From an uncultured Hungatella sp. (GTDB lineage: Bacteria > Bacillota > Clostridia > Lachnospirales > Lachnospiraceae): a DNA stretch of 11,118 nucleotides. Where the stretch lies: assembly GCA_959018155.1 (NCBI GenBank), contig CAUEKH010000049.1:1-11118 (forward strand), in the 5' to 3' direction. The translations under genes were made by a program, and so were the position numbers. Each line of letters starts with the position of its first letter. Within the stretch, counting starts at the first letter, position 1. Positions 5,984-7,092 of the stretch are shown one piece after another. The notes beneath the pieces are model-generated. The model was not told the DNA's origin and ran no database searches. It was given only the letters and a program-made list of their open reading frames with translations.

Positions 5984-6610
5984 ATGGAACAGAGTGTGGG
6001 TAAGAAAAGCGTATCAAAGAATCAGGTAGAAGATATCGTCTGTGAAATAGGGAATATCGGGGCCGGAAGCTGTATGGCGTCTCTGTCCCATATGACGGGC
6101 AAGATGGTTACCTGTTCTGCTCCGGTGGTCATGGAGATGGACTATAACCGCGTTGCGGACTGGTTCGGGCCGGCTGATGAGAGCGTGGTCGGCGTTATGG
6201 TTCCATTTTCCGGCGATATCACCGGGCTGCTTCTTCAGGTCTATAAGATGGATATGGTATCTGTGATTCTGGAAGGCGTTCTGGAAAGACAGCCGGAACA
6301 GGAGGAGCTGGATGGAAGACTTCTTGATCTGCTGAAGGAAATCGCAAATATTACCTCCTCTACTTATCTGACGTCACTGTCTTCCTGTACAGGCTGTAAA
6401 ATTGATGTGCAGGATTCCGCGGTCTCCATGGATATGGAAGGCGCCATTGTGACGGAACTGATTGGGGCAGCTGCCAATATCTATGGGCTTGCAGTCTGTA
6501 TCGGAAATAAATTTCACATCGGAGAAGACAGTGGAGAAAGCTGCCTGTGCATGATTCTTCACGGAGATTCTGTGGGTCGGTTTATTGATGCGATGGAGGT
6601 GGGGCTGTGA
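5984..6610 (+). CDS. cheC: CheC-family CheY-P phosphatase 1
   Basis: 208 residues, close to the known CheC length. The family hydrolyses phospho-CheY and binds CheD. Two active-site motifs of the form D/S-x3-E-x2-N-x22-P are expected. Motif 1 is complete: D17, E21, N24, P47. Motif 2 has D115, E119 and N122, but the final Pro is replaced by S145. The catalytic Glu/Asn pairs are kept at both sites, so phosphatase activity is plausible. The gene starts 2 bp after cheY1 with only a weak ribosome binding site, suggesting coupled translation, and its stop overlaps the cheD1 start (GTGA). It differs strongly from CheC2 outside the motifs, so the two copies are old or specialised. Confidence 0.88.
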   Translation: MEQSVGKKSVSKNQVEDIVCEIGNIGAGSCMASLSHMTGKMVTCSAPVVMEMDYNRVADWFGPADESVVGVMVPFSGDITGLLLQVYKMDMVSVILEGVLERQPEQEELDGRLLDLLKEIANITSSTYLTSLSSCTGCKIDVQDSAVSMDMEGAIVTELIGAAANIYGLAVCIGNKFHIGEDSGESCLCMILHGDSVGRFIDAMEVGL

Positions 6611-7092
6611 AAAAAATCTTGATAAAACCAGATGAGATGGCGGTTTCGGCGGAACAGGTGGTTTTAGAATCCTTAGCTGTCGGATCCAGCATTGTCGTCT
6701 GTCTCTTCGATGAGAAAAAAAAGATTGGCGGTATGGTACACACGCTGTTTCCGATTCGTCTGGCGAAGGAAAGTGTGGCGAATGACCGTCTCAGGTATGT
6801 GGATACTGCCATAAAAGTTTTGTATCAGGAGATGGTTCATCTGGGGGCGGTGCCAGGGAATATAAAGGCCAAGCTGGCCGGTGGCGCGAAAATTTTCTGC
6901 TTTGGAGGGCTGGGAGGCCAGCCGGATATTGGAAAGGATAATGTGAGTTGTGCGAGAGAACAGCTACAGGAACTGGGAGTTCCTATTTTATCTGAGGATA
7001 CGGGGGAAAATCACGGCCGGAGTGTTCATTTCTATGTAAACGATGGAAAACTGGAGATTGAAACGGTAAACCGCGCGAGATACTGGATATAG
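6607..7092 (+). CDS. cheD: CheD-family protein 1, catalytic Cys replaced by Ser
   Basis: 161 residues. CheD proteins deamidate receptor glutamines by a Cys-His mechanism and are bound by CheC. The family fold is clear: VGSSIVVCLFD (25-35), GGMVHTLFP (41-49), KLAGGAKIF (89-97) and EDTGENHGR (130-138). The nucleophile position, Cys in the usual GSC, is Ser here (S28). H45 is kept at the expected 17-residue spacing, as is Ser at the Thr21-equivalent position (S22). C32, four residues later, is not at the nucleophile site. The protein is therefore likely inactive as a deamidase and may work as a CheC partner or receptor-binding regulator (inference). It starts at GTG 6607 with a 4-nt overlap on cheC1. 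Compare the intact copy at 9811-10293. Confidence 0.88.
   Translation: MKKILIKPDEMAVSAEQVVLESLAVGSSIVVCLFDEKKKIGGMVHTLFPIRLAKESVANDRLRYVDTAIKVLYQEMVHLGAVPGNIKAKLAGGAKIFCFGGLGGQPDIGKDNVSCAREQLQELGVPILSEDTGENHGRSVHFYVNDGKLEIETVNRARYWI

What the first reader, a model, noticed from the sequence alone, without database searches (positions are those of the whole stretch)
6607..7092. CheD1 has Ser in place of the catalytic Cys while CheD2 in the same operon is intact
At the GSC nucleophile site CheD1 reads GSS (S28) with H45 still 17 residues on; CheD2 reads GSC (C30) with H47. All other landmarks are shared. A dead and a live deamidase, each with its own CheC, suggests that CheD1 acts as a binding partner or decoy (for CheC1 or receptors) rather than as an enzyme.
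Basis: partly seen in the sequence, partly recalled or inferred. Interest (0 to 1): 0.7.

Follow-up and report, generated by a model that had tools for sequence, protein, structure and literature searches.

The report
Conserved Cys-less CheD twin
A chemotaxis operon of gut Lachnospiraceae carries two copies of the receptor-modifying protein CheD, one with its catalytic cysteine and one whose whole known lineage lacks it, which suggests that the second copy works by binding rather than by chemistry.

Summary
In detail: CheD1 (6607-7092) reads GSS, with Ser28 (AGC) at the nucleophile site, and keeps His45; CheD2 reads GSC (C30, H47). It is no local mutation. In a profile search the 46 best-scoring proteins have Ser wherever they cover the site (44 of 44), with no Cys. 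A more distant orthologue in the same operon slot has Gly, and Tyr for the His. All 120 listed relatives of CheD2 have Cys. A tree built without the trait columns puts the Cys-less proteins on one branch (SH-aLRT 98). They evolve about as slowly as CheD2, keep the CheD fold and keep the Phe used for CheC binding, whereas the neighbouring Met, needed for deamidation in B. subtilis, is mostly Ile. Equal contig lengths suggest that Ser- and Cys-type copies share a contig in at least 11 metagenomic cases. In proteins of the same fold, Cys-to-Ser at this residue has been used to stop the reaction while keeping the complex. Best reading: a maintained, non-catalytic CheD acting by binding CheC1 and/or receptors. 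Inactivity and binding are inferred, not measured.

The parts
6607..7092 (+). cheD1, Cys-less CheD paralogue (161 aa)
   Evidence: ORF; Pfam CheD 93.2 bits, cut-off 25; model matches 2f9z_C, TM 0.87/0.91
6595..6602 (+). GGAGGTGG, ribosome-binding-site-like stretch before the GTG start of cheD1
   Evidence: read directly
6688..6690 (+). codon AGC, Ser28 in place of the catalytic Cys
   Evidence: orthologues
6739..6741 (+). His45, equivalent of catalytic His44 of T. maritima CheD (retained)
6670..6672 (+). Ser22, equivalent of Thr21 of T. maritima CheD
6892..6897 (+). Ile96-Phe97, aligned with B. subtilis Met101-Phe102: Met lost, Phe kept
5984..6610 (+). cheC1, overlaps the start of cheD1 by 4 bases; keeps both E-x2-N motifs and D150
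5622..5981 (+). cheY1
7139..8812 (+). methyl-accepting chemoreceptor with HAMP
8809..9195 (+). cheY2
9198..9818 (+). cheC2
9811..10293 (+). cheD2, CheD with intact catalytic Cys (C30 at 9898-9900, H47 at 9949-9951)
4609..5607 (+). cheB methylesterase without a detectable receiver domain (start codon uncertain; the mechanical ORF begins at 4510)
3780..4616 (+). cheR

Best explanation
CheD1 belongs to a Cys-less subfamily of CheD that lost its deamidase chemistry once and has since been kept as a binding protein, beside a Cys-bearing CheD2. Shown here: Ser (once Gly) at the nucleophile in the orthologues found, one branch, constraint like that of CheD2, same fold, same operon place. Inferred from family knowledge: no deamidation; CheD1 still docks on CheC1 (conserved Phe97; partner Asp kept in CheC1) and on receptor helices, so that it can support CheA activity when receptor-bound and be drawn off by CheC1 with phosphorylated CheY, while CheD2 does the covalent work. 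Which partner dominates, receptor or CheC1, is not settled.
For: Ser in 44 of 44 site-covering rows among the 46 best profile hits, no Cys; Gly in the G326 orthologue. Cys in 120 of 120 listed CheD2 relatives and in 42 of 44 distinct CheD frames of the loci held, the other two being CheD1 of H. effluvii (Ser) and of G326 (Gly). One side of a branch, SH-aLRT 98, trait columns left out. dN/dS about 0.21 for cheD1 and 0.24 for cheD2, dS near saturation. Of 42 Cys-less rows: His-to-Tyr in 2, Ala at the Thr21 position in 11, Phe97 in 42, Met101-equivalent Ile 37, Leu 4, Met 1; in B. subtilis M101A and M101E have little deamidase activity, and F102E stays active but binds CheC and receptors poorly and loses proline taxis. 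Model pLDDT 91.1; best solved match CheD of the CheD-CheC complex 2f9z. Same fold, C-to-S: BLF1 C94S is inactive and binds its target; NTAN1 C75S was crystallised with peptides (entry titles).
Against: No binding or activity was measured. His45 is kept in 40 of 42 and Ser is fixed rather than drifting, as a Ser nucleophile would also predict. A second cysteine, Cys32, is invariant in the Ser-type group (46 of 46). The Met of the CheC-binding pair is lost, so CheC binding is not assured. CheD1 is missing from G002, so the module is dispensable there. Only 2 of 397 sampled family genomes have a close CheD1 match.
Confidence: 0.67

Rival explanations
1. CheD1 is a dedicated cofactor of CheC1 only: it stimulates CheC1's CheY-P phosphatase and does not meet receptors.
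For: cheC1 and cheD1 overlap by 4 bases; CheC1 keeps both E-x2-N motifs and the Asp of the DM pair; CheC phosphatase is five-fold higher with CheD in B. subtilis (introduction of PMC3513319).
Against: CheC and receptors are described as offering similar binding sites to CheD, so keeping one tends to keep the other; receptor contacts were not tested.
Confidence: 0.2
2. CheD1 is still an enzyme, with Ser28 (or, less likely, Cys32) as nucleophile and His45 as base.
For: Ser in 41 and His in 40 of 42 Cys-less rows; Cys32 in 46 of 46 Ser-type proteins.
Against: One orthologue has Gly and Tyr, another Ser and Tyr; Ala replaces the third triad residue in 11 of 42. Cys32 is also present beside the catalytic Cys in 118 of 120 CheD2 relatives, so it did not arise as a replacement. 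C-to-S is reported inactive in BLF1, and the title of entry 1hzg calls its C866S mutant inactive.
Confidence: 0.09
3. Strain-specific mutation, sequencing error or decaying gene.
For: G002 has lost the gene.
Against: Full-length relatives at 45-90% identity with the same residue; dN/dS about 0.21; a synonymous change AGC/AGT at the site between window and H. effluvii.
Confidence: 0.02

Closest known systems
CheD receptor deamidase (Pfam PF03975; T. maritima CheD 2f9z_C, B. subtilis CheD)
   Same: Sequence family, fold, His, CheC-interface Phe, gene next to cheC
   Different: Catalytic Cys absent throughout the subfamily as sampled; Met101-equivalent mostly Ile; a Cys-type CheD in the same operon
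B. subtilis CheC/CheD/CheY-P adaptation (PMC3513319, parts 1 and 2 of 4 read)
   Different: The CheD studied there is enzymatically active; here a binding role seems to have its own Cys-less gene (inference)
STYX pseudophosphatase (PMC8622459, passages)
   Same: Natural loss of the catalytic Cys (to Gly), binding role, competition with an active family member
   Different: Another fold and pathway; binding is reported for STYX, only inferred here
C-to-S mutants of the CNF1/YfiH-like fold (NTAN1 C75S, entry titles; BLF1 C94S, passages)
   Same: Same change at the equivalent residue of the same fold
   Different: Laboratory mutants, not a natural conserved lineage

Membership tests
CheD (PF03975), homologous family | Pfam score over the curated cut-off | tested here: met
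   93.2 bits against 25
CheD (PF03975), homologous family | CheD fold | tested here: met
   pLDDT 91.1; 2f9z_C TM 0.87/0.91, rmsd 1.9
CheD receptor glutamine deamidase (enzyme) | catalytic Cys (Cys27 of T. maritima CheD) | tested here: not met
   Ser28
CheD receptor glutamine deamidase (enzyme) | catalytic His (His44) | tested here: met
   His45 in the window; Tyr in 2 of 42 Cys-less rows
CheD receptor glutamine deamidase (enzyme) | third triad residue Thr21 (Ser in NTAN1) | tested here: met
   Ser22 in the window; Ser also in 62 of 120 Cys-type CheD2 relatives; Ala in 11 of 42 Cys-less rows
CheD receptor glutamine deamidase (enzyme) | measured deamidation of a receptor | not testable with these tools
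   needs an assay
CheC-binding CheD | Met101 and Phe102 (B. subtilis), conserved in species with CheC (PMC3513319) | tested here: inconclusive
   Phe97 in 42 of 42; Met replaced by Ile96
CheC-binding CheD | physical binding to CheC | not testable with these tools
   no complex prediction or assay at hand
NCBIfam CheD equivalogs | score over the curated equivalog cut-off | tested here: not met
   best 114.9 against 240; CheD2 also fails (156 against 251), so not diagnostic

The most novel reading that the evidence does not exclude
CheD1 is a natural substrate-trapping deamidase: it sits on the same receptor and CheC sites as CheD2 without turning them over, shields receptors from CheD2, and forms with CheC1 and CheY1 a purely non-covalent, CheY-P-driven adaptation loop, in a lineage whose operon CheB has no receiver domain (window, H. 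effluvii) or is absent (G326). The two jobs of CheD would then be split between two genes.
Probability: 0.33. Interest if true: 0.72.

Novelty: new variant of a known kind. Interest (0 to 1): 0.57.

Why it matters
In the B. subtilis work read here the enzymatic and binding roles of CheD were separated by mutants of one protein. Here evolution seems to have separated them: a lineage of CheD without its nucleophile next to one that keeps it. This gives a natural system to test whether CheD can support adaptation by binding alone, and shows that calling every CheD a deamidase is doubtful for this subfamily.

Tried and rejected
Error or strain mutation: rejected by orthologues. Cys32 as a replacement nucleophile: it is invariant in the Ser-type group (46 of 46) and rare in the other profile-search CheDs (3 of 72), which at first looks like compensation, but 118 of 120 CheD2 relatives carry it beside the catalytic Cys; kept as a minor rival. 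Ala24 as a diagnostic: dropped, since 118 of 120 CheD2 relatives also have Ala. Ser at the Thr21 position as decay: dropped, since 62 of 120 CheD2 relatives have it; only Ala is informative. Duplication of a cheY-cheC-cheD block: CheD1 and CheD2 groups held as one clade are not rejected (p-AU 0.75) and share Ala24 and Cys32, which favours but does not prove it. More genomes with the operon: the genome-contig scan confirmed one locus, H. effluvii; a sample of 395 relatives of G326, largely the same genomes as before, added none at E 1e-44. Same-contig pairing rests on equal longest-contig lengths, not on contigs seen: 40 full-length Ser-type proteins against 22 of the 120 listed CheD2 relatives, chosen by eye, gave 11 pairs, so 11 is a minimum. 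Papers: searches listed no report of a Cys-less CheD; the library is open-access only and I saw listings and passages, so absence from print is not shown.

Full report
What is there. The window holds a chemotaxis operon: CheW-like protein, GGDEF-EAL protein, a small ORF in a cheW-like place, CheR, CheB, then CheY1-CheC1-CheD1, a receptor, CheY2-CheC2-CheD2, and a receiver-GGDEF protein cut by the window end. The small ORF (3449-3808) has no significant Pfam match; its name is by place only.

The observation. CheD1 (161 aa, GTG at 6607) and CheD2 (160 aa, ATG at 9811) are 34% identical over 138 residues. T. maritima CheD aligned to CheD1 (E 6.9e-23) puts Cys27 on Ser28, His44 on His45 and Thr21 on Ser22. 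That Cys27/His44/Thr21 form the CheD triad I take from passages of PMC7022378.

Conservation. A first protein search gave 23 relatives; the 19 best and the window have Ser, the other 4 have Cys. A profile built from those 20 gave 152 proteins at E 1e-15, the best 120 listed. Over these 120 the site is Ser in 46, Cys in 72 and not covered in 2. By score the 46 best rows hold Ser (44) or lack the site (2), with no Cys among them; the two remaining Ser rows, P0095 and P0109, are fragments lower in the list. H. effluvii CheD1 has Ser. The orthologue in G326, 45% identical and in the same operon slot, has Gly at the site and Tyr for the His. P0032 has Ser with Tyr. Dropping 8 fragments, P0030 (close to P0029 and P0031) and a duplicate of G326, 42 Cys-less and 115 Cys-bearing sequences were compared (the groups are labelled by the residue, so the site count itself is by definition): among the Cys-less, site 28 is Ser 41, Gly 1; site 45 His 40, Tyr 2 against His 115; site 22 Ser 20, Thr 11, Ala 11 against Thr 110, Ser 3, Lys 1, Ala 1; site 96 Ile 37, Leu 4, Met 1 against Met 113, Ile 1, Val 1; site 97 Phe 42 against Phe 113, Leu 2. 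As a control that does not depend on labels, a search with CheD2 found 3519 relatives, the best 120 listed: Cys in 120, His in 119 with one gap, Met in 120 and Phe in 120. Among related genomes 123 of 195 have a CheD match; loci were held for the best matches only, and of 44 distinct CheD frames in them 42 have Cys, the other two being CheD1 of H. effluvii (Ser) and of G326 (Gly).

Origin. On a tree of 123 rows (44 Cys-less, 79 of 115 Cys-bearing; columns 22, 28, 45 and 96 left out) the Cys-less rows are one side of a branch, SH-aLRT 98, one change of state. It was a quick search without bootstrap; two of the 44 rows are the same G326 protein, and G326 is a long branch. CheD1 and CheD2 groups held together are not rejected (p-AU 0.75), and the two share Ala24 and Cys32, which allows and mildly favours a block duplication in the operon. 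The site codon is AGC in the window, AGT in H. effluvii and GGC in G326, against TGC or TGT in CheD2, so each is one base from a Cys codon.

Not a relic. Between the window and H. effluvii CheD1 is 59% and CheD2 61% identical; Nei-Gojobori dN 0.31 and dS 1.49 for cheD1, 0.35 and 1.45 for cheD2. dS is near saturation, so the ratios (about 0.21 and 0.24) are rough, but the two genes are alike. In 11 cases a Ser-type and a Cys-type protein have the same longest-contig length to the base, which suggests one contig (limits in Tried and rejected). The H. effluvii genome has two CheD matches, both in this operon.

Fold and binding face. The AlphaFold model has mean pLDDT 91.1; its best solved match is CheD of the T. 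maritima CheD-CheC complex (2f9z_C, TM 0.87/0.91, rmsd 1.9). B. subtilis work (PMC3513319, parts 1 and 2 of 4 read) reports that M101A and M101E have little deamidase activity, that F102E stays active but binds CheC and receptors poorly and reduces proline taxis to the level of the null mutant, and concludes that binding matters more than deamidation. In the Cys-less lineage the Phe is invariant while the Met is Ile or Leu in 41 of 42. Since M101 also sits at the CheC interface in that paper, its loss counts in part against CheC binding. CheC1 keeps both E-x2-N motifs and an Asp-Met pair shared by the six CheCs aligned; that this Asp is B. subtilis Asp149, known for CheD binding, is from recall.

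What a Ser does here. In the same fold BLF1 C94S is stated to be inactive and was crystallised on its target (PMC8960835, abstract and passages), and NTAN1 C75S structures with peptides are among the best structural matches (entry titles). So the lineage carries the change that laboratories have used to stop the reaction while keeping the complex. The pseudophosphatase STYX, with Gly for Cys, competes with an active phosphatase (PMC8622459, passages): a parallel, not a relative.

Mechanism I favour. CheD1 is a binding-only CheD. It can dock on receptors and support CheA; with CheY-P it is taken up by CheC1; CheD2 does the covalent modification. Shown: conservation, one branch, constraint, fold, operon place. 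Inferred: inactivity and both bindings. A supporting circumstance: the operon CheB in the window and in H. effluvii has no detectable receiver domain and G326 has no CheB match in its genome, so feedback through CheB-P is not expected from the operon, which would leave CheC-CheD as a feedback path. Against this, H. effluvii has a second CheB domain elsewhere, in a 1610-residue open frame whose other domains I did not examine. T. maritima CheD is also reported to be a methylesterase (passages of PMC3579733), so a CheB-less genome may lean on CheD2.

Against. Nothing was measured. The subfamily is rare among sampled family genomes (2 of 397 at E 1e-30). G002, with a similar operon, has lost cheY1, cheC1, cheD1, the end of cheB and the front of the receptor gene, while keeping CheD2 and flagellin, so CheD1 is not essential everywhere. 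His45 is mostly kept, Ser is almost fixed and Cys32 is invariant, all of which a residual enzyme would also predict.

Novelty. The family is known; a conserved Cys-less CheD subfamily paired with a Cys-type one did not appear in the searches named in Tried and rejected.

Noticed in passing
   Followed up: partly
The chemosensory operon may serve something other than flagella, for instance c-di-GMP.
   Followed up: partly
window 4609-5607; L001 7337-8011: CheB has no detectable receiver domain in the window (the N-terminal 147 residues match no Pfam family) and lacks that region in H. effluvii.
   Followed up: partly
window 1135-3486 and 10322-11118: The chemotaxis operon carries two c-di-GMP-type proteins, a GGDEF-EAL protein and a receiver-GGDEF protein.
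   Followed up: no
   Followed up: no
window 7030-7092: The Cys-less lineage has its own conserved C-terminal end, roughly ETVNRxRYWI: Ile151, Glu152 and Tyr159 in 42 of 42; role unknown.
   Followed up: no
window 6700-6702 (Cys32 codon): Cys32 is shared by CheD1 relatives (46 of 46) and CheD2 relatives (118 of 120) but by only 3 of 72 other CheDs of the profile search.
   Followed up: partly
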